Shown: positions 9,828-63,944 of the stretch, in pieces
Layout of the letters: each line of letters begins with the position of its first letter
Position numbering within the stretch: position 1 is the first letter of the stretch
Source: a virus
Length of the DNA stretch: 64,000 nucleotides
IMG/VR virus record: IMGVR_UViG_3300044998_000260
Coordinates: 41,489 to 105,488 of that record
Strand: one strand, 5' to 3'
Program-made: the position numbers and the translations under genes
Notes under the pieces: model-generated
Seen by the model: the letters and a program-made list of their open reading frames with translations, nothing else
What the model was told of the DNA's origin: nothing
Database searches by the model: none

Positions 9828-9837
9828 ATAACTGCAA

Positions 9838-9878
9838 TGTTTAAACTATTGCCTCTGCCCGTTGAGCTACAAGGGCAG
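9838..9878 (-). pseudogene. tRNA 5'-half remnant
   Basis: GCCCUUGUAGCUCAACGGGCAGAGGC matches the acceptor and D arm of the neighbouring Leu-type tRNAs, but no T arm follows. The remnant overlaps the end of the methyltransferase gene and runs into the thioesterase start. Confidence 0.6.
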
Positions 9879-10460: not shown

Positions 10461-10517
10461 AATATTCACTGTAATGGTTAATAGTTGACCCACATTAATA
10501 TTTCAATCACTTATCAG

Positions 10518-10592
10518 TAGGAGTGACGGGATTCGAACCCGCATTGCACTCGTTGAAAGCGAGGGTTCCTAGGCCAATTAGAAGACACTCCC
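10518..10592 (-). tRNA. tRNA-Glu(TTC), copy 2
   Basis: Acceptor GGGAGUG/CACUCCU, D arm UUCUAAUUGGCCUAGGA, anticodon UUC. Confidence 0.88.
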
Positions 10593-10626
10593 ATAATGTG
10601 GTGCTCTACCTTTAAGCTACACAGCA
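10593..10626 (-). tRNA. tRNA 5' half of a possible permuted tRNA
   Basis: UGCUGUG, UA, D arm GCUU/GAGC, then ACCACAUUAU: a complete 5' half with no 3' half after it. Its acceptor strand pairs with the 3' half at 10641-10683, which lies upstream in the transcript. Confidence 0.5.
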
Positions 10627-10640
10627 TAGCTCAAGTCGCG

Positions 10641-10683
10641 TCGCTGTGACGGGATTCGAACCCGCACCTACCACCACTTTGAC
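10641..10683 (-). tRNA. tRNA 3' half of a possible permuted tRNA
   Basis: GUGGUGG, T arm GCGGG-UUCGAAU-CCCGU, acceptor strand CACAGCG, discriminator A, with no 5' half before it. CACAGCG pairs over seven positions (one G-U) with UGCUGUG of the half at 10593-10626. Fourteen bases separate the halves. Confidence 0.5.
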
Positions 10684-10693
10684 CTTTCGGCCA

Positions 10694-10766
10694 TACCGCT
10701 AGCGGGAATCGAACCCGCCTTTCCACTGTGAGAGAGTGGCGTCCTCAACCGATAGACGATAGCGGC
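10694..10766 (-). tRNA. tRNA-Glu(CTC)
   Basis: Acceptor GCCGCUA/UAGCGGU, Glu-type D arm, anticodon stem CCACU/AGUGG, anticodon CUC. Confidence 0.88.
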
Positions 10767-10771
10767 AAAGT

Positions 10772-10849
10772 GATGTAGATGCCAATGCTTTCCTTTGTCT
10801 TTAAGCCTTTCGGCGTTCGGATACCACCTAGCTTGTGCATCTACATCAG
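10772..10849 (-). ncRNA. stem-closed RNA element between tRNAs
   Basis: Closed by a perfect 12-bp helix (UGAUGUAGAUGC/GCAUCUACAUCA) with an inner GCC-GAAA-GGC hairpin. Not a tRNA and no gene. Family unknown. Confidence 0.5.
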
Positions 10850-10925
10850 TCGGGATAGCCAGATTCGAACTGGCGCACTCCTGTATCCGAAACAGGCGAG
10901 GTTGACCTGGCTCCTCCACATCCCG
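10850..10925 (-). tRNA. tRNA-Pro(CGG)
   Basis: Acceptor CGGGAUG/UAUCCCG with C1-G72, anticodon stem CCUGU/ACAGG (as read on the plus strand), anticodon CGG. Confidence 0.88.
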
Positions 10926-10932
10926 ATAAAAG

Positions 10933-11005
10933 CGCCCTTGGCAGGAATCGAACCCACATCTGCGGAGGTAGAAGCTCCGTGCCTTCTCCATTAGACCACA
11001 AGGGC
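10933..11005 (-). tRNA. tRNA-Arg(TCT)
   Basis: Acceptor GCCCUUG/CAAGGGC, discriminator G, perfect anticodon stem CGGAG/CUCCG, loop CUUCUAC with UCU. Confidence 0.88.
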
Positions 11006-11008
11006 AAT

Positions 11009-11122
11009 TCATTCATTGTCATCAATATCATCGGACTCAAATTCAAATCCATCAATATTACGATACTTGTGTGCCGTTGGATGAGAATCGTATCCTCGGT
11101 TGTGACCTGTTCTCCAGTGCAT
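11009..11122 (-). CDS. small hypothetical protein, 37 aa
   Basis: Begins MHWRTGHNRGYDSHP eight bases after the stop of the upstream gene, with AAGGCG as weak ribosome-binding site, and ends in an acidic tail FESDDIDDNE. The composition looks protein-like rather than random. No family is recognised. Confidence 0.5.
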   Translation of the reverse strand: MHWRTGHNRGYDSHPTAHKYRNIDGFEFESDDIDDNE

Positions 11123-11130
11123 CGCCTTGT

Positions 11131-11700
11131 TCAACTTAGTCCCAACTTAGTCCACACATTGTTACGAAGCATCGACTCTCGGAGTTCACCAAACCGAGAT
11201 TCAATCTCTTGATTGGGAATCCAATGTTGAGTCACCATATTTGGTTCTTTACGAAATACCAAATAAAAGTCATTCATAAATACACAGCCAGTCACAATAT
11301 ACTTCTGTTTATAGCCACGAATGTGTGTGACATCCACCCATTCACGTTTTGTGAAAAACGACTTGTGCTTTTCACTCAATTCATCGTATTGTTGTTGCGT
11401 CAAATACTTTGGCTTCTGTGGTATTGGTTCCCATTTATTCGTTTTCCAGTTACGACGAAGGAACTTTTCATTATTACAGAATTCAATCGTATTAATCTTA
11501 TCTAGCACTTGTTGCATTTCTCGAGCATCTTTACGATTCTTTGCATCATCACTAAGAACATAATACCGAACCCATCCGCGCTGATACGGTTCTACATCGA
11601 TCCATTCACCGCTCTTACGGCGTGCGTCAGACAAAGTCGTGTATTCGTTCCAGATACGGCGAATCCGCTTGTGTTCTTCGGTCTTATAATTACGCCGCAT
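11131..11700 (-). CDS. hypothetical protein, 189 aa
   Basis: A basic, aromatic-rich soluble protein with a repeated W(I/V)DV...Y element: GEWIDVEPYQRGWVRYYV near residue 35 and REWVDVTHIRGYKQKYIV near 125. The two copies suggest an internal duplication of a small beta domain. The ATG lies inside the last codons of the upstream HNH gene, so translation may be coupled. No family is recognised. Confidence 0.6.
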   Translation of the reverse strand: MRRNYKTEEHKRIRRIWNEYTTLSDARRKSGEWIDVEPYQRGWVRYYVLSDDAKNRKDAREMQQVLDKINTIEFCNNEKFLRRNWKTNKWEPIPQKPKYLTQQQYDELSEKHKSFFTKREWVDVTHIRGYKQKYIVTGCVFMNDFYLVFRKEPNMVTQHWIPNQEIESRFGELRESMLRNNVWTKLGLS

Positions 11701-12199
11701 CAATACCCTTATATTTCCGTAAATATCGGTTTCTTTTTGTATCTTTCTTTTGTCTAGTTACAAATGTTTCTGTTTGACTATGACAGTTGGGACATAAAAG
11801 TCTAAGGTTTTTCGGCAAATTGTTATCACTATTGCCGTCTATGTGATCTAGTTGTAGAGTAAGTGGTTTGTTTAGATGTTTACCTAAATTTCCACAACCA
11901 ACACATACATAACCAACAGTTCTAGTGATGTAGTTCTTTAGTGTTGAAGCTTGTGACACTTCGCCATTTTCTACTCTAATTCGTGTTATAGTCTCAAACT
12001 TGTAAGTCTTGTCACACTCAATAGAACAACATCTGAATCGGCTTTCTTTGCCACAAACTCTACAATTATAGAGTGTTGATTTTCTTTGTCTTTTAGGAAA
12101 TTTGTTGTTGTTGACGATTGCCGCACATTTCCGTGAACAAAATTTATTTTGTGGTTTACTAGAAATATCCGTATTGCAGTTTATACATAAATTTATCAT
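11690..12199 (-). CDS. HNH homing endonuclease with zinc ribbons, 169 aa
   Basis: Three Cys-rich clusters come first (CINCNTD, CSRKCAA, CRVCGKES, CVGCG), then the HNH core LQLDHIDGNSDNNLPKNLRL followed by CPNCHSQTETF, which supplies the second zinc pair and the metal-binding Asn/His. A basic tail follows. These features mark free-standing HNH nucleases that nick or cut phage DNA and spread into sister genomes. It lies among tRNA genes in the same orientation, as four related genes in this island do. Confidence 0.85.
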   Translation of the reverse strand: MINLCINCNTDISSKPQNKFCSRKCAAIVNNNKFPKRQRKSTLYNCRVCGKESRFRCCSIECDKTYKFETITRIRVENGEVSQASTLKNYITRTVGYVCVGCGNLGKHLNKPLTLQLDHIDGNSDNNLPKNLRLLCPNCHSQTETFVTRQKKDTKRNRYLRKYKGIDAA

Positions 12200-12259
12200 A
12201 TAGGATTCGAATTGTGGTTACCTATATAAGTAATATTTACTGTTAGTTTCAATTCAAAA

Positions 12260-12336
12260 TACTCCGTGTAGGATTCGAACCTACGATCATATCCTGTATG
12301 TAAGACAGGTGCCCTGGGCCACTAGGCGAACGGAGT
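12260..12336 (-). tRNA. tRNA-Val(TAC)
   Basis: Acceptor ACUCCGU/ACGGAGU, anticodon stem CCUGU/ACAGG, anticodon UAC. Confidence 0.88.
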
Positions 12337-12342
12337 GTAAAG

Positions 12343-12413
12343 TTACCCCACTACGATTCGAACGTAGATTCGTTGGTTCAAAGCCAACTGTCTTGCCATT
12401 AGACGATGGGGCA
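12343..12413 (-). tRNA. tRNA-Gln(TTG), copy 2
   Basis: Acceptor UGCCCCA/UGGGGUA, U1-A72, anticodon stem GUUGG/CCAAC, anticodon UUG. Confidence 0.88.
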
Positions 12414-12416
12414 ATG

Positions 12417-12500
12417 TATTGCCTTATCGTTGGATAAGGCAATAAATACGGACTCTAGCTACACTCCGGAGTGACTAGTTTAATCGGGTCCGTGCCGAAA
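12417..12500 (-). ncRNA. spacer with two hairpins
   Basis: A perfect AUUGCCUUAUC/GAUAAGGCAAU hairpin (12418-12445) and a CGGAC/GUCCG-closed element with inner CACUC/GAGUG. No U tract follows, so processing or stability signals are more likely than termination. Confidence 0.4.
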
Positions 12501-12504
12501 TCAA

Positions 12505-12578
12505 TGTGCCATACTGGAATCGAACCAGTGACCACCGATTTATAAGACCGGTGCTCTAACCAACTGAGCTAATGGCAC
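12505..12578 (-). tRNA. tRNA-Ile(TAT)
   Basis: Acceptor GUGCCAU/AUGGCAC, D arm UAGCUCAGUUGGUUAGAGCA, loop CUUAUAA with UAU, reading AUA. Confidence 0.88.
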
Positions 12579-12584
12579 ATAAAA

Positions 12585-12658
12585 TGCACGTGGTAGGATT
12601 CGAACCTACGCACTTCGAATTATGAGTTCGCTGCTCTAACCAACTGAGCTAAGGGACC
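12585..12658 (-). tRNA. tRNA-Met(CAT) with non-complementary acceptor strands
   Basis: D arm UAGCUCAGUUGGUUAGAGCA, loop CUCAUAA and T arm are typical elongator Met. The 5' acceptor strand GGUCCCU does not pair with the 3' strand CACGUGC. A chimera, a pseudogene, or an RNA needing repair. Confidence 0.6.
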
Positions 12659-12678
12659 GTTAGAGATGTCGTTTATAA

Positions 12679-12778
12679 TACGCCTACTGGGACTTGAACC
12701 CAGAATAATCCGCATATCAGGCGGCTCCTTTCGGGCGGAGGTATAAGCTCCGTGCTTTAACCATTAAGCTATAGGCGC
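12679..12778 (-). tRNA. 100-nt tRNA with two anticodon-like arms (UAU and GAU)
   Basis: Acceptor GCGCCUA/UAGGCGU, D arm and T arm (CUGGG/CCCAG) are normal. A perfect anticodon arm CGGAG-CUUAUAC-CUCCG (UAU) is followed by CCCGAAAGGAG and a second arm CCGC-CUGAUAU-GCGG whose loop matches tRNA-Ile(GAU). Total length 100 nt. Confidence 0.6.
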
Positions 12779-12794
12779 GTATATTCACCACAAG

Positions 12795-12871
12795 TCCGCC
12801 CAATAGGAATCGAACCTACGTGGTACCGTCTATTCTTTCAACCGCATATCAGGCGGAGGGAATATGGGCGG
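12795..12871 (-). tRNA. tRNA-Ile(GAT)-like RNA lacking a D arm, copy 1
   Basis: Acceptor CCGCCCA/UGGGCGG, T arm GUAGG/CCUAU with loop UUCGAUU, discriminator A. Only five bases lie between position 9 and the arm UCCGC-CUGAUAU-GCGG(U). A UAUUC/GAAUA helix then surrounds it. No D arm can be drawn. Confidence 0.55.
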
Positions 12872-12887
12872 ATATTTTTACTACAAG

Positions 12888-12963
12888 TGCGCCCGACTGG
12901 AATTGAACCAGTGTGTACCGTCTACCTTTTCAACCGCTTATCAGGCGGAGAGGATACGGGCGC
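12888..12963 (-). tRNA. tRNA-Ile(GAT)-like RNA lacking a D arm, copy 2
   Basis: Acceptor GCGCCCG/CGGGCGC, T arm ACUGG/CCAGU. The core repeats copy 1: CUCCGCCUGAUAAGCGGUUG and UAGACGGUAC are shared, while the outer UAUCC/GGUA helix differs from UAUUC/GAAUA by a compensating change. Confidence 0.55.
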
Positions 12964-12968
12964 GTATT

Positions 12969-13406
12969 TTACAAATATTCAAGTTTCCACCAATTAAAAC
13001 TATGTGCTGTTTTTATTTGATGACAATTTGCACATCTAATTATACACTTAGATATTTCTTGTTTTAAACGAGCCATTCCTATAGGACGTTTTGAAGAAAT
13101 TTTTTCGCTTATATTAAAATGTTTATTCGTTTGATGATCGAATTGTAGAGTTAGAATATTACGTTCACCACAATCTATACAAGGATTTTGTTTCAAATAC
13201 TCTATAACATAATCACGTATTTGTCTTATGCGTTTTTCTGAGTGTACGGATGCGGTTGTTATACGTTTTTGTCTATGTTTGATGTAATATTGTTCTTGAT
13301 ATGTTTTTTCACACAACTTACATCTATGTGTAAGTCCGTTTCTTTTCTTGTAAAATTCAGAAACATGTTTTTCTTTATTACATATAGAACACTGTTTTGT
13401 ATTCAT
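12969..13406 (-). CDS. HNH homing endonuclease, 145 aa
   Basis: Starts MNTKQCSICNKEK with GGAGAATAAT upstream. Two CxxC pairs near the N-terminus (CSICNKE, CKLCEK) form a zinc ribbon. The HNH part is CIDCGERNILTLQFDH, then ISKCIIRCANCHQIKTAHSF at the end. The same C-terminal block, RCANCH plus a WWK tail, is found in two broken copies nearby (13.85 and 17.5 kb), so this is a family that has spread repeatedly in the island. It would cut or nick DNA at tRNA-linked targets; target unknown. Confidence 0.85.
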   Translation of the reverse strand: MNTKQCSICNKEKHVSEFYKKRNGLTHRCKLCEKTYQEQYYIKHRQKRITTASVHSEKRIRQIRDYVIEYLKQNPCIDCGERNILTLQFDHQTNKHFNISEKISSKRPIGMARLKQEISKCIIRCANCHQIKTAHSFNWWKLEYL

Positions 13407-13578
13407 ATTATTCTCCAATGTGTGATACATATAATATGGAGTTGAACGTCAAAACGTATGTATCAGATCAACATATTTCCTTCTAAGAGCCCCCAATCGG
13501 TTCTGGTCCGTCCTCTCCGAGCCATTTATCTACTTCTTAATTTTCGTCCAAACCCTTTATTTTGCGAATACAGAAAAG

Positions 13579-13659
13579 AGCTGCCTGTGAGAATCGAACT
13601 CACAATATCTTACGATGCTACCATACCAAGGTAGTGCCTTTCCATTAGGCTAAGGCAGC
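13579..13659 (-). tRNA. tRNA-Thr-type anticodon GGT, long variable arm
   Basis: Acceptor GCUGCCU/AGGCAGC, perfect CUACC/GGUAG stem, anticodon GGU. The variable region is 14 nt and can form AUC-GUAA-GAU, which Thr tRNAs normally lack. Discriminator U. Confidence 0.75.
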
Positions 13660-13780
13660 ATTATGGGAAACCAACATACATCCGAAGATAAGTTGTGTGG
13701 TGCTGTGTCAGCAGTCTTCGATATTCATCTACCCTGACAGATAGTGAATCCTTATCTTTTCTTACCACTAAATTCCCAAG

Positions 13781-13852
13781 AGCTCGATTAGAGAGTTGAA
13801 CTCTATTCTCTGACTTACGAGGCCAGTGCATCACCCTTTATGCTTATCGAGC
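13781..13852 (-). tRNA. tRNA-Thr(CGT)
   Basis: Acceptor GCUCGAU/AUCGAGC, D arm GCAUAAAGGGUGAUGC, stem CUGGC/GUCAG, loop CUCGUAA. Class I. Confidence 0.82.
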
Positions 13853-13940
13853 AATTTCCACCAACCAAATTGCTTGGCTGTTTTACGTTTATGACAATTT
13901 GCACATCTAACTTCACATTTACTAATTTCATTTAGATTAC
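13853..13940 (-). pseudogene. C-terminal remnant of an HNH endonuclease
   Basis: One frame reads NEISKCEVRCANCHKRKTAK then FGWWKLL, matching the end of the HNH protein at 12969-13406. The N-terminal part is absent; tRNA genes flank it on both sides. Confidence 0.75.
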
Positions 13941-13943
13941 GAG

Positions 13944-14019
13944 ACTCTCCGACAGGATTTGAACCTGCGATTTGTACGGTTTTGCAGACCGTTGCCTTTG
14001 ACCACTCAGCCACGGAGAG
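13944..14019 (-). tRNA. tRNA-Cys(GCA), copy 2
   Basis: Acceptor CUCUCCG/CGGAGAG, discriminator U, stem ACGGU/ACCGU, anticodon GCA. Confidence 0.88.
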
Positions 14020-14062
14020 AAGAAAACGTCACTTATCGGTGAGTATTACACACCTTAGACAA

Positions 14063-14146
14063 AGCTGGTGGTGGGATTCGAACCCACGGTGGGATTGCTC
14101 CGCTTGCTTACAAGGCAAGTCCTATCAACCGCTAAGGGACACCAGC
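14063..14146 (-). tRNA. tRNA-Thr-type anticodon TGT, long variable arm
   Basis: Acceptor GCUGGUG/CACCAGC, perfect CUUGC/GCAAG stem, anticodon UGU. Variable region of 15 nt (CGGAGCAAUCCCACC), again class II-like for a Thr anticodon. Confidence 0.78.
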
Positions 14147-14159
14147 AAATTACAATTTA

Positions 14160-14231
14160 CTTGTTTAAGCCGTCTACGATTGTTAGATGGTTTACAAAAC
14201 CTGTGCATCACCATTAATGCTTAAAGAGCAT
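14160..14231 (-). pseudogene. degenerate tRNA-Thr remnant
   Basis: The 5' half GCUCUUUAAGCAUUAAUGGUGAUGCAC resembles tRNA-Thr(CGT), and a UUUGUAA loop follows, but the T arm has lost its UUC. Confidence 0.5.
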
Positions 14232-14309
14232 AAATCAACAAAAGTGGATTAGAACATCGTTGGTCTTACATGCTAACACTTCTATGTTTACAATCACACA
14301 TTTTTTTGT

Positions 14310-14378
14310 GGTTTCCGTTCGGGTTGGGTTACTTTCTAAATCTACACAATAACAACTTTTTTGTCAAGCCCTCTGATC
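14310..14378 (-). promoter_or_regulatory. promoter of the tRNA block; 69-bp copy shared with rIIB
   Basis: -35 TTGACA (14362-14367), 17-bp spacer, -10 TAGATT (14339-14344). The whole 69 bp recurs at 37788-37856 with one mismatch. Confidence 0.75.
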
Positions 14379-14468
14379 GCGATCAGAAAACGCCCCATGT
14401 TCCTATTGAAAAATTAAGTGGAGGATGAGAGAATTGCAATTCAATTTTGATGTTTTCCACTAATTATA

Positions 14469-14541
14469 TGGAGACTACGGGTAACGCTCCCGTTCCTACG
14501 CATTGCAAGTGCGTCGTGCCACCTTTTAACACCTAGTCCCC
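14469..14541 (-). tRNA. tRNA-Ala(TGC), atypical T loop
   Basis: Acceptor GGGGACU/AGUCUCC, stem ACGCA/UGCGU, anticodon UGC. The T loop is AGCGUUA instead of UUCNANN. Confidence 0.75.
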
Positions 14542-14542
14542 A

Positions 14543-15067
14543 ATGTCTTTCATTACTAAAATCTGCCAAGTGTGTGCCAAAGAATTTCAAGCAAAACTGT
14601 CGGAACATAAACGTGGCAACTCAAAAACTTGTTCAAAGAAATGCGGTGCAGTTCTTAGTTCAAGGGTTCGTACAAAAATCAAAATTCCGAACGCCACCTG
14701 TGCATTTTGCAAAATCGAATTTTACATGCGTCCATCATCCAAGAAAAATTCAAAGAGTGGTATTTTCTTTTGCTGCCGAACACATAAAGATATGGCACAA
14801 CGGCTCGGTGGTATTCCAGAAATTCAACCAGCACACTACGGTACTGGTAATGGAATTAGTACATACAGAGACTTAGCATTTTCACATTACGATGCGCGGT
14901 GCAACCAATGTGGATATCAAAAGTTCAAAGAAGTGTTAGATGTTCATCACATTGATAATGATAGATCAAACAACAACATAGAAAATTTAGAAATACTCTG
15001 TCCTACATGCCACCGAGAACGACACTATATACTAAAAACAGGATGGTATGCGCGATCAAAAAAGTAA
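14543..15067 (+). CDS. HNH homing endonuclease on the opposite strand, 174 aa
   Basis: Three zinc-binding pairs come first (CQVCAKEF, CSKKCGA, CAFCKIEF), then CNQCGYQKFKEVLDVHHIDN, NLEILCPTCHRERH, the HNH core with both metal ligands. It runs opposite to the tRNA genes and begins two bases after the 5' end of tRNA-Ala, so it has no room for an upstream leader except through that tRNA gene. This is consistent with insertion at a tRNA end. Expression signals are not obvious. Confidence 0.85.
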   Translation: MSFITKICQVCAKEFQAKLSEHKRGNSKTCSKKCGAVLSSRVRTKIKIPNATCAFCKIEFYMRPSSKKNSKSGIFFCCRTHKDMAQRLGGIPEIQPAHYGTGNGISTYRDLAFSHYDARCNQCGYQKFKEVLDVHHIDNDRSNNNIENLEILCPTCHRERHYILKTGWYARSKK

Positions 15068-15092
15068 TCATCATGTACCATACACTCGAAAG

Positions 15093-15120
15093 TGTAGATT
15101 GGACTCGAACCAATTTTAAC
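15093..15120 (-). pseudogene. tRNA 3'-end remnant
   Basis: AUUGG-UUCGAGU-CCAAU T arm and acceptor strand without a recognisable 5' half. Confidence 0.5.
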
Positions 15121-15151
15121 CAGAGAACAACAATTCATCGTACCACAAACT

Positions 15152-15222
15152 ACCACAGTAGGAGTCGAACCCTATCTTCCTCTTTGCAAGAGAGGCGCTT
15201 TCCCAAATTAAGCTACCGGCCC
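15152..15222 (-). tRNA. tRNA-Ala(TGC)-like with non-complementary acceptor
   Basis: D arm UAGCUUAAUUUGGGAAAGC and anticodon arm CCUCU-CUUGCAA-AGAGG are good. The 5' strand GGGCCGG does not pair with the 3' strand, and the T stem is weak. Chimera or pseudogene. Confidence 0.5.
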
Positions 15223-15227
15223 ATAAG

Positions 15228-15302
15228 AGTACCGTGTGGGGATCGAACCCACCTATAACTGTTTAACAGACAGCCGCAATCAACCAGACATGCCAACGGT
15301 AC
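15228..15302 (-). tRNA. tRNA-Asn(GTT), copy 1
   Basis: Acceptor GUACCGU/ACGGUAC, loop CUGUUAA with GUU. Discriminator U is unusual for Asn. Confidence 0.82.
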
Positions 15303-15316
15303 ATAATACATTTACA

Positions 15317-15405
15317 TTTGTCGTGTGTAACTGGTGGACTCGCCTTCGCTACATTCGGACACGACACCGAATACAGTGTTTAACTCGCTCTGGCTGAGCC
15401 CACAC
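15317..15405 (-). ncRNA. spacer with stem-closed element
   Basis: UGUCGUGU/ACACGACA closes a 34-nt loop region; a second GUG/CAC-closed part follows. No gene. Confidence 0.35.
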
Positions 15406-15408
15406 AAG

Positions 15409-15480
15409 ATGGAGTGAAAGGAATTGAACCTTTATCATCGCTTTCAGAGAGCGAGGTAATTGCCGTTATACGACACTCAA
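15409..15480 (-). tRNA. tRNA-Gln(CTG), copy 2
   Basis: Acceptor UUGAGUG/CACUCCA with one mismatch, stem UCGCU/AGCGA, loop CUCUGAA with CUG. Confidence 0.8.
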
Positions 15481-15485
15481 ATAAA

Positions 15486-16043
15486 TCAAATTAGTTCATA
15501 CTTTTTTGCCCACTTACGAACTGCGTTATCAGACACATTATATTTTCTACCTATCGCAGCCCATGAATATTTTTCTAAATCATGTTGTAATTCAATTTTT
15601 GTTGGTCTTTTCACAACACGACGATTTAAAGATTTACAATCATCACAACATCTACGACTTTTACTAAATGTATTTAATGTAGTGTTACAATATTTACAAG
15701 TTCGAATCTTTGGTTGTCTTACTTCACGATAATTTATATACGATTCATCAAACTTAATATAGTTATTTGGCAACTTTGTAACACCTGCTTCAACTTCTCT
15801 ATGACAATTTGAACATAAAAGAACACACCTACGCAGTTCTTCTACAACAACATTCCATTTTTTTGGATTTGCTATTACTTGTGATATACTAAAGTTTTTT
15901 GTTGACGGATCTATGTGATGAAAATCCATTGCTTCTATGCATGAACAGTATCCACATATAACACATTTACCGCCCATAGAATCTACCATTAATTTTTTTG
16001 TAGATTTACGCCACTTGTTTACTTTTTTACTATTACTACTCAT
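15486..16043 (-). CDS. HNH homing endonuclease with C-terminal helix-turn-helix, 185 aa
   Basis: The HNH domain comes first: CVICGYCSCIEAMDFHHIDP, then RRCVLLCSNCHREVEAG. A second zinc cluster follows (CKYCNTT, CCDDCKS). The C-terminal 40 residues (IELQHDLEKYSWAAIGRKYN, VSDNAVRKWAKK) form a typical helix-turn-helix that probably contacts the target site. MSSN was chosen as start because GAGGAG lies seven bases upstream. It would cleave a specific tRNA-island sequence; target unknown. Confidence 0.87.
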   Translation of the reverse strand: MSSNSKKVNKWRKSTKKLMVDSMGGKCVICGYCSCIEAMDFHHIDPSTKNFSISQVIANPKKWNVVVEELRRCVLLCSNCHREVEAGVTKLPNNYIKFDESYINYREVRQPKIRTCKYCNTTLNTFSKSRRCCDDCKSLNRRVVKRPTKIELQHDLEKYSWAAIGRKYNVSDNAVRKWAKKYELI

Positions 16044-16107
16044 AGAATTACTCCTCATTTATCTATAAGTAGTTCGAACTATCGAAAAAGTAACATATAC
16101 TGTTATA

Positions 16108-16179
16108 CAGGAGCGGAAAGATTCGAACTTTCATTGACGGAGTAACAATCCGTGGGCTTGCCTTTTAGCCGACACTCCT
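16108..16179 (-). tRNA. tRNA-Asn(GTT), copy 2
   Basis: Acceptor AGGAGUG/CGCUCCU, discriminator G as in Asn, perfect ACGGA/UCCGU stem, anticodon GUU. Confidence 0.85.
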
Positions 16180-16227
16180 AAAAATGAAGGTTCCTCGCCG
16201 GCCTGCGCCGTCACCTACAACCGACAG

Positions 16228-16301
16228 GGTGAATGACGGGATTTGAACCCGCGTCTGCAGCCTTCACAGGGCTGTGTAATATCCGCTATACTACATTCAC
16301 C
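16228..16301 (-). tRNA. tRNA-His(GTG)
   Basis: Anticodon GUG, acceptor GUGAAUG/CAUUCAC, with the His-specific G(-1) opposite C73. Confidence 0.9.
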
Positions 16302-16304
16302 ATA

Positions 16305-16446
16305 ATTGGCAGTTTTGTCGCCGAAGCGCCAGTGTCGAACTCTGCCAAACGACATTTTTGTTGTGTAAGGTGCCTTTCGGCTTTAAATGATCCGTTATCC
16401 TCTCTCCCACTCTGACGGATCAAGCAGGTCAATTGACACAACATAT
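16305..16446 (-). ncRNA. structured RNA spacer
   Basis: Helices UUGUGU/ACACAA, GAUCCGU/ACGGAUC, GCC-GAAA-GGC and UUGGCAG/CUGCCAA are nested in 140 nt without a gene. Family unknown. Confidence 0.45.
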
Positions 16447-16447
16447 A

Positions 16448-16520
16448 TGCACCGCCTGGGACTCGAACCCAAATCTTACCGGTTAAGAGCCGGATGTAAT
16501 AGCCATTATACTAACGATGC
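16448..16520 (-). tRNA. tRNA-Lys(CTT)
   Basis: Acceptor GCAUCGU/GCGGUGC, stem UCCGG/CCGGU, loop CUCUUAA with CUU. Confidence 0.85.
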
Positions 16521-16524
16521 GTTA

Positions 16525-16599
16525 TGCCCCTGGTAGGATTCGAACCCACACCTGATAGATTAAAAGTCTACTGTGCTCGCCGTTAAACACCACAGAGGC
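16525..16599 (-). tRNA. tRNA-Lys(TTT), copy 1
   Basis: Acceptor GCCUCUG/CAGGGGC, loop CUUUUAA with UUU, stem GUAGA/UCUAU. Confidence 0.87.
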
Positions 16600-16611
16600 G
16601 TTGTACTACAG

Positions 16612-16687
16612 TCTGGACGACTGGATTCGAACCAGCGTGCTCCTCCTCCCAAGGGAGGCGAGGTAAACCAGGCTCCTCAACGTCCAG
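16612..16687 (-). tRNA. tRNA-Pro(TGG), copy 2
   Basis: Acceptor CUGGACG/CGUCCAG with C1-G72, perfect CCUCC/GGAGG stem, anticodon UGG. Confidence 0.88.
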
Positions 16688-16693
16688 ATAAAG

Positions 16694-16765
16694 TGCCCTC
16701 ATCAGGATTCGAACCTGAAATCGGAGTTCCGTAGACTCCTGTGATGTCCATTTCACTACAAGGGC
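16694..16765 (-). tRNA. tRNA-Arg(ACG)
   Basis: Acceptor GCCCUUG/UGAGGGC, stem GGAGU/ACUCC, loop CUACGGA with ACG (inosine expected). Confidence 0.88.
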
Positions 16766-16840
16766 ATAGTCCGATATTTGTATTGCGTGTCGGAATCAGC
16801 ACGCTTGCCGTTATGGCTTTATGTCAAAAATCTACTTCAG

Positions 16841-16928
16841 TGCGTGTGGAGGGAATTGAACCCCCGACGGGCTTTTACACCAACGGATTTACAGTCCGGT
16901 GCCACCAACCAGCATTGGCCTCACACGC
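16841..16928 (-). tRNA. tRNA-Tyr(GTA)
   Basis: Class II, acceptor GCGUGUG/CACACGC, loop CUGUAAA with GUA, long variable arm. Confidence 0.9.
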
Positions 16929-16929
16929 G

Positions 16930-17010
16930 ACATCAAGTTAAGAATTTGCCAAACCGGCATACTTTCTTGATGTTTCGACTCCAACGAGTCATCATCAGGC
17001 GTGTCCTACT
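16930..17010 (-). ncRNA. leader of the tRNA-Tyr block
   Basis: Transcribed from the promoter at 17017-17045. ACAUCAAG/CUUGAUGU and GACUC/GAGUC hairpins are present; no gene. Confidence 0.4.
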
Positions 17011-17016
17011 TTTTGT

Positions 17017-17045
17017 ATTATACCTAATATCAACTTATTTGTCAA
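17017..17045 (-). promoter_or_regulatory. consensus sigma70 promoter in the RNA island
   Basis: -35 TTGACA (17040-17045), 17-bp spacer, -10 TATAAT (17017-17022): perfect in both boxes. Confidence 0.85.
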
Positions 17046-17050
17046 GCCAA

Positions 17051-17137
17051 CGGAAACGGCCGGAGTCGAACCGACATTGCCTTTTGAGGGGCTTGACTGT
17101 TTTCGAAACAGCTTGCTACACCAATTGCCGCGTTTCC
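17051..17137 (-). tRNA. tRNA-Ser(CGA)
   Basis: Class II, acceptor GGAAACG/CGUUUCC, discriminator G, loop UUCGAAA with CGA. Confidence 0.88.
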
Positions 17138-17151
17138 AAATTCACTATCAG

Positions 17152-17240
17152 CGGAAAGTAAGGGATTCGAACCCTTTAAACCGTTTTACAGGTTTACTGC
17201 TTAGCAGGCAGTTGCACCGCGCCATCTGTGCCGACTTTCC
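17152..17240 (-). tRNA. tRNA-Ser(GCT)
   Basis: Class II, acceptor GGAAAGU/ACUUUCC, discriminator G, perfect ACUGC/GCAGU stem, anticodon GCU. Confidence 0.9.
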
Positions 17241-17244
17241 AAAG

Positions 17245-17316
17245 CGCCCCAAGAGGGATTCGAACCCCCACTAAAACGTTCGAAGCGTTTCGTGCTCTCC
17301 GTTACACTATCGAGGC
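17245..17316 (-). tRNA. tRNA-Arg(TCG)
   Basis: Acceptor GCCUCGA/UUGGGGC, stem AAACG/CGUUU, anticodon UCG, discriminator G. Confidence 0.87.
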
Positions 17317-17332
17317 ATATCACAACATCAAG

Positions 17333-17404
17333 TCCCACTGGCAGGGATCGAACCTGCCTCTCCGGTTCTTCAGACCGGCGCTAATCCATCTCAGCTACTG
17401 TGGG
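17333..17404 (-). tRNA. tRNA-Phe(GAA)
   Basis: Acceptor CCCACAG/CAGUGGG, stem CCGGU/ACCGG, loop CUGAAGA with GAA. Confidence 0.88.
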
Positions 17405-17428
17405 ATATCTTGAACCCACACCTATACA

Positions 17429-17502
17429 CAGGTCGGGAGGGAATCGAACCCATCTTTAAGGCAGTTTTGGAGACTGCTGTTCAACCGGAGAACATCCGAC
17501 CC
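17429..17502 (-). tRNA. tRNA-Trp(CCA)
   Basis: Acceptor GGGUCGG/CCGACCU, discriminator G, stem GCAGU/ACUGC, anticodon CCA. Confidence 0.87.
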
Positions 17503-17504
17503 AT

Positions 17505-17577
17505 AGTTTTATGACTTTTGCGTGCAATTTTCTGTGACAGTTGGCACATAAAACTACACATTTACTAATTTCTTAAA
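17505..17577 (-). pseudogene. C-terminal remnant of an HNH endonuclease
   Basis: A frame reads ISKCVVLCANCHRKLHAKVI, the end of the same HNH family as 12969-13406. Nothing upstream of it remains. Confidence 0.7.
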
Positions 17578-17583
17578 TTTTGA

Positions 17584-17658
17584 CGGGATGTACGGGAATC
17601 GAACCCGTCTGTTGTCCGCAGTGACAGTGCGGTGGCCCCACCTTTGGCCCGACACCCC
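17584..17658 (-). tRNA. tRNA-Asp(GTC)
   Basis: Acceptor GGGGUGU/ACAUCCC, discriminator G, perfect CCGCA/UGCGG stem, anticodon GUC. First tRNA of the main array after the terminator. Confidence 0.88.
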
Positions 17659-17693
17659 AATTATTACACAACAATTATCAACATAGGTAAAAC

Positions 17694-55785: not shown

Positions 55786-57864
55786 TTATTGACCTCCATT
55801 CACCATGATCTTGTTGAGTGTACGAGCAATGCTGGTAACATTGGCCGGATCAATGAAATGTGCATCCTGACCATACATCTTACGGAAACCCGCGTGTTCC
55901 TGCTTGCTGTGACCAATGTAATAACTCATTACCTGAATACCATTGGCACGGAACTCCTGCATCATACGACGTGTGTGTTTATACGCCGATTCACCGCCGT
56001 ACGAGTAGTGGCGACCCTTCCACTCAAATCCGTGGCCGGGTTCACCATCCGACAGATTGATGAAATACTTCTTAGCACCCTTGCTCGTCTTGAGAATTTC
56101 TTCCTTGACCGCTTCGAAGCACAGTGCTTCCGGCGTCCCGCCGGCCGCCGACAGATACGGCACCACATCACGAACGCGCTGGAACTTGTGACGCTTGCTA
56201 TCATAGATAATTGCCAAATGGGCGTGTGACGAACCGCCGTCACGAACCGCAATCGTACAATTCATCTTACGATTCTTTTCCGCCGCGTAAGCAATAGCCA
56301 CGGCAAGCGTCATCGCCTGGCGGAACTTCTCACCCATCATCGAACCACTCAGGTCGATATCGAGCCATACATCAACAGGCTGACGCTGTTCAGTAACAAT
56401 ATGATGGAACACCTTTTCGTTACCATATCCAAATCCCGAAATCAGTCGCTTATCAATACGCCCAGTTTCCTGACGAGTAAACTTCAACGGTTTCTCATCC
56501 TGTACTACGGAAATACGTGAGGCAAGAACCTGACCCATACGAATGCCGTCAGCGACTGCACGTTCTGCATCGGGGTTGCGGCCGACGTTACGACCATATC
56601 CATAAGCACCGAATCGCATAGGGAACGAATCACTCTGGACTGTCCGCTTGGTAACTTCCCGATAAATGATAATCGGACACTTAACATTACGACCAATGAA
56701 ATTGCCTTCCACGGTCTTAAAATCGGCCTTGGAATCCTCAAGCATCTGGAGATCTCGCATAATCCGATTTGACAGCGTCTCCTTTTGTTCATTGAGCGCC
56801 GAGTGGTCAAGGAACTTACGCTGCTTGTTGAGCGCGGCGTCGAGTTCTTTACCAGACACGGGACGATATTCGACTTCACCATCGCTGTTTTCGTTTGTCG
56901 GCGAAAAGTCCATATTCGGCATATCAGTAACAACCGTCTTGACATTCCGCAACTTCATATCATCCGACCGACCATTCTCACTTGTGACCGACTTGCTATT
57001 ACGGACGATGATTTCCGCAATACGAAGCGCATCCGCAAACAACAGAGGCAGATGATCGTGATTGACCGTGTCCATACCAGCCCACCGACGCCACCCAATA
57101 TCCTCGTCACCACGAGCAAACAAACCCTTGCGAGTGAAGTTTACAATGTCACGAATCTTGTCAAGATCGGGGAGCGCAGTAACATCGAAATGCTTGTTCG
57201 TCATATTGATAACGAACAATTCGTAATTGCGAACGGACGGATCACGGAACTTGGGATCGCGCAGCGCGTTGTCAATCTTCGGAGTGTGCCAATGTGCATC
57301 ATACAACGCCTGGTAGTACGGGCGATACCCGCTCGCGTTTTCGTACATCCACAGGTCGATACGACGATCTTCCATGTAATTCATCATCATCTGAATGAGC
57401 TGACGAACCTGCGATTCGGTCATGCCAATCTTGGCAGCGTCTGCCAGAATCGTGCTCTTACTGATAAGATCACGGAAGTTCTTTTCCATCTTCGGAAGAA
57501 ATGCCAATGACTCATTGCTGAGAAGGCAGTGCGACGCCTCGTGCAACGCCAGACCGACCTGTACGTCAATCTTCGACGGATCAAGGTCGGCGGAAATCAC
57601 GACCTGCTTGCCATCGGTGTAACTGAGCTTGCCACTTGAGAAAATCACGGGGATATTACGTCCAGTGACAATCTGAACGAAATTGCCGATGGCACGCTGC
57701 ACGATGCGAAGCCGCCGCAAATGTTCGGGCGAACCTATTTCGCACTGCGTCATCATTTCTTCGGCTTCATCGCCGAGCCAATAAACGCTGTGCTGTTCAC
57801 GAGCCTTGGCAATCCGTTCTTGGATGCGCTTCTGAACGTATGGATTCTGGATAGTAGTAGTCAT
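55786..57864 (-). CDS. VWA-domain protein (CobT-like) with N-terminal HExxH site, 692 aa
   Basis: The C-terminal 230 residues are a von Willebrand A domain with the metal site DIDLSGSMMG (DxSxS), a T in GGTPEAL and D in NLSDGEPG. The N-terminal half contains LALHEASHCLLS (about residue 112), a HExxH pattern as in metallopeptidases, and a YMEDRRIDLWMY segment. Beside it lies a MoxR-type AAA+ ATPase, so the pair resembles CobS/CobT and MoxR/VWA systems, in which the ATPase loads or remodels a metal-dependent complex. Which target it acts on is unknown. Confidence 0.8.
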   Translation of the reverse strand: MTTTIQNPYVQKRIQERIAKAREQHSVYWLGDEAEEMMTQCEIGSPEHLRRLRIVQRAIGNFVQIVTGRNIPVIFSSGKLSYTDGKQVVISADLDPSKIDVQVGLALHEASHCLLSNESLAFLPKMEKNFRDLISKSTILADAAKIGMTESQVRQLIQMMMNYMEDRRIDLWMYENASGYRPYYQALYDAHWHTPKIDNALRDPKFRDPSVRNYELFVINMTNKHFDVTALPDLDKIRDIVNFTRKGLFARGDEDIGWRRWAGMDTVNHDHLPLLFADALRIAEIIVRNSKSVTSENGRSDDMKLRNVKTVVTDMPNMDFSPTNENSDGEVEYRPVSGKELDAALNKQRKFLDHSALNEQKETLSNRIMRDLQMLEDSKADFKTVEGNFIGRNVKCPIIIYREVTKRTVQSDSFPMRFGAYGYGRNVGRNPDAERAVADGIRMGQVLASRISVVQDEKPLKFTRQETGRIDKRLISGFGYGNEKVFHHIVTEQRQPVDVWLDIDLSGSMMGEKFRQAMTLAVAIAYAAEKNRKMNCTIAVRDGGSSHAHLAIIYDSKRHKFQRVRDVVPYLSAAGGTPEALCFEAVKEEILKTSKGAKKYFINLSDGEPGHGFEWKGRHYSYGGESAYKHTRRMMQEFRANGIQVMSYYIGHSKQEHAGFRKMYGQDAHFIDPANVTSIARTLNKIMVNGGQ

Positions 57865-60465: not shown

Positions 60466-60581
60466 CTGTTCTACCGTCCACCCTTTTAGATTTTTTGAAT
60501 TGCGAGTTTGCGTTCTTTTTAAATCTGTTCTACCGTCCACCCTTTTAGATTTTTTGAATTGCGAGTTTGCGTTCTTTTTAA
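60466..60581. repeat. tandem duplication of 58 bp
   Basis: ATCTGTTCTACCGTCCACCC and following bases occur twice head to tail. One copy encodes the end of the GIY-YIG protein, the other lies between it and the kinase gene. Confidence 0.85.
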
Positions 60582-61280
60582 AAATGTCAGCGATTGGTAT
60601 GGTATACTCATATTTCTTGCAAATTCTTTTAAATTTGAAGTTTGATAAATTTTACCTGTATTATCTGTAATTTTATAATTCTTTGATGTTTCTACTATCT
60701 TTTTTCGCGGCCTAGGACCGGAACTTTTATATTTTCTATTTATTTCTGGATCTTTTAACACCGGATCTTTTAACTTCCATCCACGATGTTCGTGTTGATC
60801 ACCATTTATTACTTTGCGTAGTCTAGCTCTGCGTAAATTATGGATTCTACAAAATTCAGATAATCCAATTAAATTTGTGTATACAGTTCCATCGGGCGAT
60901 ATTAAATCCGGTATAGGTCTACGCTTACATTCCATTGCTTTTGTACTGCTAATACGCAATTTTTGTAAAGTTTCCTCTGTAAATTCTCTAACATCTCCGC
61001 CTATAGTCATATTATACGATAAATTAATAGATCTATATTTTTCAATCCACTGTTGTTCTTTTTTATTTAACTCTTCTAAACTATTAGCACTATCAATAAC
61101 ATTAAACTCAAATTTACTCTGACCATATTTATTCCACGAATGTTGTAAATATTCATTTACATGTATATTTTTGTTTAACGTCCAGTAGTGATATCTGCGT
61201 CGTTTTTGTGGATCTTTCTGTCTTGTTTGACCGATATATCTTCTATCAGTTATTATATTTCTTATTTCGTAAATTATCAT
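60519..61280 (-). CDS. GIY-YIG homing endonuclease, 253 aa
   Basis: MIIYEIRNIITDRRYIGQTR is the GIY-YIG start (IYEI...RRYIGQT), followed by NEYLQHSWNKYGQSKFEFNV with the conserved Arg/His and Glu positions. C-terminal DNA-binding modules of NUMOD type follow (SEFCRIHNLRRARLRKVING, SNLKEFARNMSIPYQSLTFL). GGAGGTCGCT precedes the ATG. A free-standing homing endonuclease; its 3' end is duplicated in tandem. Confidence 0.88.
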   Translation of the reverse strand: MIIYEIRNIITDRRYIGQTRQKDPQKRRRYHYWTLNKNIHVNEYLQHSWNKYGQSKFEFNVIDSANSLEELNKKEQQWIEKYRSINLSYNMTIGGDVREFTEETLQKLRISSTKAMECKRRPIPDLISPDGTVYTNLIGLSEFCRIHNLRRARLRKVINGDQHEHRGWKLKDPVLKDPEINRKYKSSGPRPRKKIVETSKNYKITDNTGKIYQTSNLKEFARNMSIPYQSLTFLKRTQTRNSKNLKGWTVEQI

Positions 61281-61335
61281 AGCGACCTCCACCAATACCA
61301 ATAATTAGTGTGGACCGCTATAAAGATTGACACGT

Positions 61336-61511: not shown

Positions 61512-62336
61512 TCATACCTTATGATTATCAGGCACCCATTCGCTGATGCCATCAACGACAGCGTTGAGTTTGAAGTCACTAAAATAAGTTGGAGCAAGTG
61601 GTCGAACCACCGTAAACAAAACATCAGCCAACTGACGAATTTCAGGTTCGGCATGACGATTGCTTCGTGCCTCAATGAACCAACGAAGCGCTCGATAGTT
61701 CATTGTCCAAGTGCCTCGCGTCTCTAATCCATGTGGTAGAATGTTACGAGCCTTACCACGAGCCCACTTACGCAAATCAAATCCCGTGAGATTGTTGGGA
61801 TTTAACATTTCAAGATCAGCCACCTGTTCTGCATACAACTTAAATGCTCTTTCGGCTCCATCAAGGTATTCCTTGACCAAAACCACCTCAGGGATCAACT
61901 CGTCATCCGTGACTTTCTTCGCAGGCATCCATCCACGGACGGAATCACGCGCGAACTTATGCTTACGAAACAGATCAGCATAATATGGTTCAAGCACAAT
62001 AGCACTATCTTCTTCTTTAGTATATCGCGTTGAACGTTGACTGATTGCAAATGGACGGTGACGATTCAATTCAAGAGAAAGACCGCGAGTGATACCTTCA
62101 ATGAAAAAACTCACAGTGGCGTGTTCAAGAACTGATCCATGACCATGCTCAAGAATTGCGGTTTGATTGTCGGTATTACTGCGGCCGTGCTTTCCACTGC
62201 TATCATAGCACACTTTTGCGGCAAAACTACCCAGTTTCTCAGCATCTGTGCCGTCCTCTGGAATTTCAAATCTGTCTGTTGGGTAGAACTTAGTGTGTGC
62301 TACTATAGTAACCCTGGGCTCCAAAATGACCTTCAT
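61512..62336 (-). CDS. thyX: FAD-dependent thymidylate synthase ThyX, 274 aa
   Basis: The ThyX signature RHRPFAISQRSTRY (RHRxxSxxxxSxRY type) stands at about residues 91-105, with FIEGITRGLSLELNRHRPFA before it and HAEPEIRQLADV near the end. ThyX methylates dUMP to dTMP using methylene-THF, FAD and NADPH, so the phage can make its own thymidylate. Length is normal. GGGAGAATGC precedes the ATG. A second, truncated copy of its 5' end lies upstream (62967-63089). Confidence 0.93.
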   Translation of the reverse strand: MKVILEPRVTIVAHTKFYPTDRFEIPEDGTDAEKLGSFAAKVCYDSSGKHGRSNTDNQTAILEHGHGSVLEHATVSFFIEGITRGLSLELNRHRPFAISQRSTRYTKEEDSAIVLEPYYADLFRKHKFARDSVRGWMPAKKVTDDELIPEVVLVKEYLDGAERAFKLYAEQVADLEMLNPNNLTGFDLRKWARGKARNILPHGLETRGTWTMNYRALRWFIEARSNRHAEPEIRQLADVLFTVVRPLAPTYFSDFKLNAVVDGISEWVPDNHKV

Positions 62337-62857
62337 GCATTCTCCCGTTTTAGTTTTAATCCTTTGTTCCACGGTATTCTACCTTTCATCTTTAGTTTTG
62401 TTTCTTCTTTAAGCGGTATGCCTTTTAAAGATTTTCTTATTTTATCTTTTGTTACTTCTGATACCTCGTGACCCTTCAATTTTTCTGATAATTCAGGCCT
62501 TTTTTTTCCTTGCCAGTATCGTGAATTATTTTTGGCTATCTTTTTTCTAGTTTGTTCTGTGTGAGATCCGGCCCCACCACCGTTATGTTTATTTAGCCAT
62601 AGATCGGACTTGGAAGCTTTTAATCTGATTAAGACATTCCTCTCCCATAAAATTGCATCTCGTTTATTATCGAACACTTTTCTAACTTCCACTTCAAACG
62701 AATTCATTCCATATTCTTTAATCAAATCATGAACTACCGTAGAGCTACTAAAATATTTAGTCCATAAATCAGAGGGACAACATCCTTTTGCAGTTCTAAC
62801 TCCATAATACTTTTTACCGGTGGGTTTATGATACAAATAATATGTAAAGGGTGTCAT
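62333..62857 (-). CDS. GIY-YIG homing endonuclease next to thyX, 174 aa
   Basis: FTYYLYHKPTGKKYYGVRTA gives the GIY-YIG-like start, with a conserved Arg and the Glu in RDAILWERNVL. C-terminal NUMOD-like helices follow (EQTRKKIAKNNSRYWQGKKR, RIPWNKGLKLKREN). Its stop overlaps the ATG of thyX. GGAATTTTGT precedes its ATG. The same tail sequence lies upstream of the thyX fragment at 63089. Confidence 0.82.
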   Translation of the reverse strand: MTPFTYYLYHKPTGKKYYGVRTAKGCCPSDLWTKYFSSSTVVHDLIKEYGMNSFEVEVRKVFDNKRDAILWERNVLIRLKASKSDLWLNKHNGGGAGSHTEQTRKKIAKNNSRYWQGKKRPELSEKLKGHEVSEVTKDKIRKSLKGIPLKEETKLKMKGRIPWNKGLKLKRENA

Positions 62858-62879
62858 ACAAAATTCCAAACAAAAAATC

Positions 62880-62950
62880 CCCACGTTCAATACCAAGCCT
62901 GCAAGCGAGGATATCTACTAATGGGGATAATTTACTATGTGCTTGCAGGC
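62880..62950 (-). other. inverted repeat between thyX fragment and GIY-YIG gene
   Basis: GCCTGCAAGC and GCTTGCAGGC (10 bp, perfect) enclose about 36 bp of AT-rich sequence. Possible terminator or intron-edge stem. Confidence 0.5.
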
Positions 62951-62966
62951 ATATATAAGTAGTTAG

Positions 62967-63089
62967 TTATGAGGCAAAACTACCCAGCTTCTCGGCGTCA
63001 GTTCCGTCAGATGGAATCTGGTAAACTGGGTGACCATGAAACTGGGTACTTGCGACGACGGTAATCGTAGGTTCCAAAATAACCTTCAT
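62967..63089 (-). pseudogene. truncated thyX 5' end
   Basis: ATG at 63087-63089 opens MKVILEPTITVVASTQFHGH, DGTDAEKLGSFAS and stops. It is a diverged copy of the first 40 codons of thyX; the last 15 bp before the break, CTGGGTAGTTTTGCC, are identical in both. Confidence 0.8.
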
Positions 63090-63153
63090 GCATTCTCCCG
63101 TTTTAGTTTTAATCCTTTGTTCCACGACCCGTTGGTTGTGGGAAACTACTTCA

Positions 63154-63182: not shown

Positions 63183-63944
63183 TCAGTTCTGCGGCGGAAC
63201 AATACGATAACCCATACCACGAACACTTTGTAGCATCCCGCCGGCGGGGCCGAGACGCTTTTTTAGTCGAGCCACATGCATATCCACGGTACGTGTCTGA
63301 ACATCGGGAGCGGCACCCCATACTTTATCAAGAAGTGTTGATCGAGAAACAACTTTATTCTGATTACCAGCAAGATAAGTGAGCAACTTAGATTCCGTCT
63401 TTGACAATTGTAGCGGTTCGCCATTTAGAGTAACACTGCCTTCCTTGGGATCAATGGATAACGGACCCACATCTACGGTCAATTTCTTGGGTTGACCGCG
63501 TTCGACAGGTACCACACGTAACTTGAATCCGTCAGGACCGGATTCAATGCTAATACTGGCATCTTTGTGTTTTTGCATGAGTGTTTTAATCATGCCAGGC
63601 AACTGACGAGCGGCGTCCTTATGCTTGATTTCATATTCACCTTGGCCGGTCGATAAACGTTTATTAATTTTATCCGGCACAGCATTGACCCGCGAGTCGG
63701 GTCCAATCATTTGATTTGGATTACTCGGTTCCGTGTTTGTTGCTTTCTTTGCATCGTTCGGCTGCAAGGCAACAAGTTTACCATTCTTGGTCTTGTGGGT
63801 AACTTTACCATCCTTACCCCAACGGCCAAAGCTCATATAATCCAAACCAAGCTTCTTTGCATCTTCGCTCGCCTTGCTTTCCATGCGAACGTTAACACGT
63901 CGAAGCTTCTCTCGGAGTCGTTGTCGAATTTGTTCGTTAGTCAT
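63183..63944 (-). CDS. OmpR/PhoB-type winged-helix DNA-binding protein without receiver domain, 253 aa
   Basis: The last 95 residues are a Trans_reg_C winged helix: LSIDPKEGSVTLNGEPLQLS, KTESKLLTYLAGNQNKVVSR, STLLDKVWGAAPDVQTRTVD, MHVARLKKRLGPAGGMLQSV, RGMGYRIV. Recognition helix and C-terminal hairpin (GMGYRI) match PhoB. Instead of a phosphorylatable receiver, the N-terminal 155 residues are basic and polar. PhoB-type proteins bind direct repeats with 11-bp period, like those in the 25.7-46.3 kb promoters. It may be the activator of these; that link is inferred. Confidence 0.82.
   Translation of the reverse strand: MTNEQIRQRLREKLRRVNVRMESKASEDAKKLGLDYMSFGRWGKDGKVTHKTKNGKLVALQPNDAKKATNTEPSNPNQMIGPDSRVNAVPDKINKRLSTGQGEYEIKHKDAARQLPGMIKTLMQKHKDASISIESGPDGFKLRVVPVERGQPKKLTVDVGPLSIDPKEGSVTLNGEPLQLSKTESKLLTYLAGNQNKVVSRSTLLDKVWGAAPDVQTRTVDMHVARLKKRLGPAGGMLQSVRGMGYRIVPPQN

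What the first reader, a model, noticed from the sequence alone, without database searches (positions are those of the whole stretch)
61512..63126. thyX replaced beside a GIY-YIG gene
A diverged fragment of the thyX 5' end (40 codons) lies upstream of the GIY-YIG gene, and an intact thyX follows it. The string CTGGGTAGTTTTGCC at the break and the GIY-YIG tail (about 40 bp) occur in both copies. This fits marker exchange: the endonuclease cut a resident thyX and brought in its own flanking allele. It recalls the T4 td/I-TevI pair but with ThyX.
Basis: partly seen in the sequence, partly recalled or inferred. Interest (0 to 1): 0.66.

Follow-up and report, generated by a model that had tools for sequence, protein, structure and literature searches.

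The report
Homing endonuclease between two thyX alleles
In an environmental phage, a selfish DNA-cutting gene sits between a cut-off beginning of one version of the DNA-precursor gene thyX and a complete thyX of another version; this looks like a leftover of the cutting gene's spread, but a near-identical phage without it carries the same complete thyX, so that gene was not freshly imported.

Summary
On the minus strand lie a 40-codon 5' fragment of a diverged thyX (65% aa identity), a SegE-like GIY-YIG homing endonuclease gene (HEG) and an intact thyX. A 45-bp exact repeat (HEG tail plus thyX leader) starts both thyX copies. A sister phage (L003 contig, 97.6-98.4% identical over long backbone stretches) has one unbroken thyX here, with no HEG and no fragment. 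Its thyX matches the intact window copy (98.9% nt, dS 0.034), as closely as neighbouring genes do. The intact copy is therefore the backbone allele, the fragment is the odd one, and no recent allele import is visible. Loss between the 45-bp repeats would give the sister arrangement. Best reading: remnant of intronless homing in which a thyX 5' end was displaced by HEG plus leader plus a second 5' end, a mirror image of yeast WHO elements at FBA1. Cleavage of thyX is untested and the order of events unresolved. None of 79 other phage thyX loci has a second partial copy; none of about two dozen related HEG loci has a displaced fragment. No intron or intein was found. New variant of a known kind, moderate interest.

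The parts
63183..63944 (-). upstream gene, phage regulator with Trans_reg_C domain (left flank of the locus)
   Evidence: Pfam PF00486, E 1e-22; orthologue in L003 in the same place
63082..63126 (-). 45-bp direct repeat, upstream copy: thyX leader with RBS, start codon and first codons; in the HEG frame it reads WNKGLKLKRENA*
   Evidence: exact repeat; orthologous leader in L003 differs at 2 sites
62970..63089 (-). diverged thyX 5' fragment, 40 codons
   Evidence: 42 nt differences from intact copy, codon positions 12/8/22
62858..62969 (-). non-coding spacer between fragment stop and HEG, with interleaved inverted repeats and a T6 run (attenuator- or terminator-like, unproven)
   Evidence: sequence; fold energy no better than shuffles, z 0.47
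62333..62857 (-). GIY-YIG homing endonuclease gene, SegE-like, 174 aa, C-terminally shorter than relatives
   Evidence: Pfam SegE_GIY-YIG E 4e-5 (just under cut-off), PHROG 314 homing endonuclease E 5e-21, model resembles I-TevI catalytic domain, Foldseek prob 1.00
62329..62373 (-). 45-bp direct repeat, downstream copy: end of HEG plus start of intact thyX
61512..62336 (-). intact thyX, 274 aa, flavin-dependent thymidylate synthase
   Evidence: Pfam Thy1 E 3e-40; RHRx7S motif in sequence; ThyX structures matched E 4e-34
60519..61280 (-). second GIY-YIG gene downstream of thyX; in sister L003 only its first codons and tail remain
   Evidence: Pfam GIY-YIG E 3e-5; deletion scar in L003

Best explanation
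The locus is the product of intronless homing by a free-standing GIY-YIG endonuclease at thyX. Proposed steps: the enzyme cuts thyX near codon 40, at the conserved FA(A/G)(K/R)xCY segment. Repair against a phage carrying the endonuclease installs the endonuclease gene, a thyX leader and a complete 5' end of a second thyX allele. The cut-off 5' end of the earlier allele is left upstream as a 40-codon fragment, and thyX function is kept. This is the mirror image of yeast WHO elements, which replace the 3' end of FBA1 and leave 3' fragments. The 45-bp repeat then lets recombination remove fragment and endonuclease cleanly, which gives the sister's arrangement. Shown: the anatomy, the repeat, the empty site, and backbone-level identity of the intact allele. 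Inferred: cleavage of thyX, the repair route, and the order of events.
For: An unbroken, HEG-free thyX lies at the same site in sister L003. The fragment is coding-constrained and ends at the conserved FAAKVCY segment (C43 and Y44 invariant in the phage ThyX set; aligned in solved ThyX), as expected for a cut inside a conserved site. HEG relatives sit beside or inside essential phage genes, often overlapping the next start codon. Of 80 phage thyX loci only this phage has a second partial copy. thyX is bracketed by two GIY-YIG genes, and L003 shows a deletion scar of the second one, so HEG loss occurs in this lineage. Published WHO elements give the same geometry at the other gene end (PMC7282813); SegE and SegF do intronless marker exchange in T4 (PMC2988022).
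Against: The intact thyX is no less like the sister than neighbouring genes (dS 0.034 against 0.044-0.132, one further gene being a recombinant outlier at 0.42), so no import is visible since the split. L003 with the same allele must then have lost the HEG, or the fragment is the incomer. The excess divergence of the ThyX N-terminus is shared by the fragment, so it does not show that only the intact copy was replaced. No phage with a full-length version of the fragment allele was found. Cleavage is untested, and the HEG lacks the C-terminal region its relatives have.
Confidence: 0.5

Rival explanations
1. The fragment is a hitch-hiker. The window lineage had leader-thyX as in L003, and a piece of a related phage (leader, 5' end of its thyX, endonuclease) was inserted upstream, joined on the right through the short match between the endonuclease tail and the thyX leader. 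The resident thyX was never replaced.
For: The intact thyX and both flanks are backbone-like and only the segment between the 45-bp repeats is extra. The HEG is C-terminally shorter than its relatives exactly where it meets the leader, as if fused there.
Against: It needs a donor with an endonuclease inside or beside its thyX 5' end, which was not found. A clean 45-bp repeat is equally explained by loss in the sister.
Confidence: 0.27
2. Ordinary illegitimate recombination or tandem duplication between two related phages made the fragment, and the endonuclease is a bystander that inserted in the non-essential gap.
For: The second endonuclease region nearby also shows duplications and deletions. 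No cleavage data exist.
Against: The break lies at a conserved segment directly abutting the HEG region. Fragment and adjacent HEG occur together only here among 80 thyX loci.
Confidence: 0.16
3. The 40-codon ORF and the hairpin region are a functional leader (attenuator or translational coupling) controlling endonuclease and thyX.
For: Open frame with RBS and stop before interleaved inverted repeats and a T run.
Against: Fold energy is not better than shuffles (z 0.47). The sister lacks it. The sequence is homologous thyX coding sequence.
Confidence: 0.05
4. The fragment is the 5' exon of a group I intron or intein-split thyX (td/I-TevI-like or fractured gene).
For: The HEG catalytic fold resembles I-TevI. 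A relative sits in a split terminase annotated with inteins.
Against: No intron family match up to E 5, only an unrelated chance hit. The intact thyX already contains the same 5' end. The fragment ends in TAA.
Confidence: 0.02

Closest known systems
WHO elements at FBA1 in Torulaspora and Lachancea yeasts (PMC7282813)
   Same: Endonuclease gene lies between a full-length target gene and a truncated fragment of another allele; proposed mechanism replaces one end of the gene while keeping it functional and leaves the old end as a fragment.
   Different: WHO replaces the 3' end, uses a HO-like (intein-derived) endonuclease and has proven cleavage; here it would be the 5' end, a GIY-YIG enzyme in a phage, one fragment only, cleavage unproven.
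T4 SegE/SegF free-standing GIY-YIG endonucleases, intronless homing and marker exclusion (PMC2988022)
   Same: Free-standing GIY-YIG HEG beside an essential nucleotide or DNA gene; best Pfam match is SegE_GIY-YIG.
   Different: The T4 cases as described in the passages read carry no left-over fragment of the target gene flanking the endonuclease; here a fragment and a 45-bp direct repeat are present.
Allomyces/Glomus mitochondrial mORF elements with foreign gene ends (PMC3630166)
   Same: Endonuclease ORF associated with a duplicated, diverged gene end, one native and one foreign.
   Different: Mitochondrial, carboxy-terminal ends, mostly LAGLIDADG.
T4 td intron / I-TevI
   Same: Thymidylate synthase gene and GIY-YIG catalytic fold (Foldseek match to the I-TevI domain).
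   Different: No intron; ThyX is unrelated to Td/ThyA (own knowledge); the endonuclease gene is intergenic.
HEG islands in phages (PMC10448857)
   Same: A gene bracketed by two HEGs.
   Different: That paper describes placement in general; the displaced fragment is an extra feature.

Membership tests
Free-standing GIY-YIG homing endonuclease (Seg type) | GIY-YIG catalytic domain | tested here: met
   PHROG 314 E 5e-21; SegE_GIY-YIG E 4e-5, score 24.2 against cut-off 25; modest-confidence model (pLDDT about 60-76 in the domain) matches I-TevI domain, prob 1.00, E 6e-3
Free-standing GIY-YIG homing endonuclease (Seg type) | Not inside a self-splicing intron or intein | tested here: met
   No intron family hit; neighbouring thyX complete
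Intronless homing / marker exclusion | HEG-less relative with intact target at the same site | tested here: met
   L003
Intronless homing / marker exclusion | Imported flanking allele (co-conversion tract) next to the HEG | tested here: not met
   Intact thyX is as close to the HEG-less sister as other genes; only import older than the split, or from a near-identical donor, remains possible
Intronless homing / marker exclusion | Endonuclease cuts the HEG-less allele | not testable with these tools
   needs in vitro cleavage
WHO-type gene-end replacing element | HEG between full-length gene and truncated fragment of another allele | tested here: met
WHO-type gene-end replacing element | Discordant ancestry of the replaced end and the rest of the gene | tested here: inconclusive
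   N-terminal 40 residues unusually diverged from outgroups (column permutation p 0.0009), but the fragment shows it too
Group I intron with HEG (td/I-TevI type) | Intron core and exon continuity | tested here: not met
   complete downstream gene
Split-intein fractured gene | Gene halves fused to intein halves | tested here: not met
   Fragment ends in TAA after 40 codons; downstream ThyX complete

The most novel reading that the evidence does not exclude
A phage element that works as a natural cleave-and-replace system on an essential nucleotide gene: it cuts thyX near the start, supplies its own 5' end that keeps the enzyme working and resists recutting, and leaves the old 5' end as a footprint. 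That would be a bacterial-virus counterpart of yeast WHO elements, evolved independently and acting on the opposite gene end.
Probability: 0.28. Interest if true: 0.62.

Novelty: new variant of a known kind. Interest (0 to 1): 0.42.

Why it matters
Free-standing phage endonucleases are known to swap neighbouring alleles, but footprints of single events are rarely this legible in sequence. Here one locus holds both alleles, the endonuclease, a recombination-ready repeat and a near-identical empty site. That makes the proposed cut near codon 40 of thyX, and resistance of the intact allele, directly testable. If confirmed, it extends gene-end replacement from yeast and mitochondria to phages.

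Tried and rejected
Group I intron: no Rfam match except an unrelated IS009 hit at E 3.3. Intein or fractured gene: fragment ends in TAA and the downstream ThyX is complete. CTGGGTAGTTTTGCC as a special break signal: explained by homologous LGSFA codons. Recent import of the intact thyX: not supported by dS and identity against L003. Search for a full-length version of the fragment allele: a degenerate pattern on FHGHPVYQ gave only this phage and a chance match in L013; a pattern covering both alleles, and the leader sequence, gave only this phage and L003; genome contigs gave none; the GenBank phage set gave no DNA match, only ThyX below 60% identity. N-terminal divergence as proof of a chimeric intact ThyX: significant alone, but the fragment shares it. 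Leader as HEG scar: the leader reads WNKG in the HEG frame, and KMKGRxPWNKG-like motifs occur in HEGs of PVA8 and ACP17, so L003's leader may be a remnant of a lost HEG; a chance 11-14 bp match used for joining cannot be excluded, and the HEG is shorter than its relatives there. No held paper mentions thyX, phage and GIY-YIG together.

Full report
The observation. On the minus strand the order is regulator, thyX fragment, spacer, GIY-YIG gene, intact thyX, a small ORF and a second GIY-YIG gene. The fragment is 40 codons (63089-62970), ends in TAA, and matches the intact ThyX at E 8e-12 with 62-65% amino-acid identity. The intact ThyX has 274 residues with a strong Thy1 match. The endonuclease gene is 174 codons and its stop overlaps the thyX start as ATGA. 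A 45-bp exact repeat covers the end of the endonuclease gene, the thyX ribosome-binding site and the first thyX codons; its other copy precedes and begins the fragment. Its core occurs nowhere else in the window, even with three mismatches. Another record, 3300044961_000126, is identical over 12 kb.

The endonuclease. Profile matches and a modest-confidence model whose first ranked neighbours are I-TevI catalytic domain structures agree on GIY-YIG. Relatives in T4-like and other phages sit next to or inside essential genes, several overlapping the next gene's start. Those compared are some 25-80 residues longer, and continue beyond the point where this one stops.

The empty site. Contig 3300045911_000113 (L003) has regulator, leader, unbroken thyX, small ORF and AAA gene in the same order, without the endonuclease or the fragment. 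Its backbone is 97.6-98.4% identical to records of the window phage over long upstream stretches. The intact window thyX differs from it at about 1% of sites, dS 0.034, against 0.044-0.061 for three downstream genes, 0.086 and 0.124 for two more, 0.132 for the regulator and 0.42 for one gene that looks recombinant. So the intact thyX is the shared backbone allele. The fragment differs from it at 42 of 120 sites with third positions most affected, which means it diverged as part of a working gene and was cut off later.

What follows. The simple story, that the endonuclease recently cut a resident allele in this lineage and brought in the intact one, predicts that a HEG-less sister should carry the fragment-type allele. 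It does not. Two histories remain. Either the displacement is older than the split and L003 lost the insert by recombination between the 45-bp repeats, or the fragment and endonuclease came in together. Loss is plausible because L003 shows a deletion scar of the second endonuclease gene, with its first codons and tail still present. The leader sites where L003 differs are shared by both window copies, which does not decide the matter because no outgroup is available.

A test for a replaced gene end. Compared with ThyX of three other phages (L038, L041, L042; 54-56% identical), residues 1-40 of the intact protein are more diverged than any non-overlapping 40-column window further on (permutation p 0.0009). 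The fragment shows a weaker but similar excess. This fits repeated turnover of the 5' end or simple faster evolution, and does not show that the intact copy alone was replaced.

How unusual. Among 80 phage thyX loci only this phage has a second partial thyX copy. Among 14 related endonuclease loci and 13 from viral contigs, partly the same ones, none carries a displaced fragment of the next gene, where enough upstream sequence was held to look.

Comparison. The geometry matches yeast WHO elements, where the endonuclease gene lies between a full-length FBA1 and an FBA1 fragment left by replacement of the 3' end (PMC7282813), and fungal mitochondrial elements with foreign gene ends (PMC3630166). 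In phages the closest kind is intronless homing with marker exclusion (PMC2988022), and thyX bracketed by two endonuclease genes fits the HEG islands of PMC10448857. Nothing supports an intron or intein.

Verdict. The structure is real and rare. Homing-associated displacement of a thyX 5' end is the best explanation at about even odds. Direction and enzyme specificity remain open.

Noticed in passing
60480-61301: The second GIY-YIG gene has its last ~59 nt tandemly repeated just before the AAA gene; sister L003 keeps only its first codons and tail (deletion scar).
   Followed up: partly
62858-62969: Interleaved inverted repeats (GCCTGCAAGC/GCTTGCAGGC and ATCCCCAT/GTGGGGAT followed by T6) between fragment and endonuclease, terminator- or attenuator-like.
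   Followed up: partly
55786-57864: This 692-codon gene has dS 0.42 against L003 while its neighbours have 0.03-0.13: a recombination boundary near 58,000.
   Followed up: no
855-17659: tmRNA and some 44 tRNA genes in one array, including one with a CTA anticodon (called tRNA-Pyl by ARAGORN) at 5719, interspersed with small HNH-like ORFs.
   Followed up: no
62333-62857: The endonuclease is roughly 25-80 residues shorter than its relatives, ending where its frame meets the thyX leader.
   Followed up: partly
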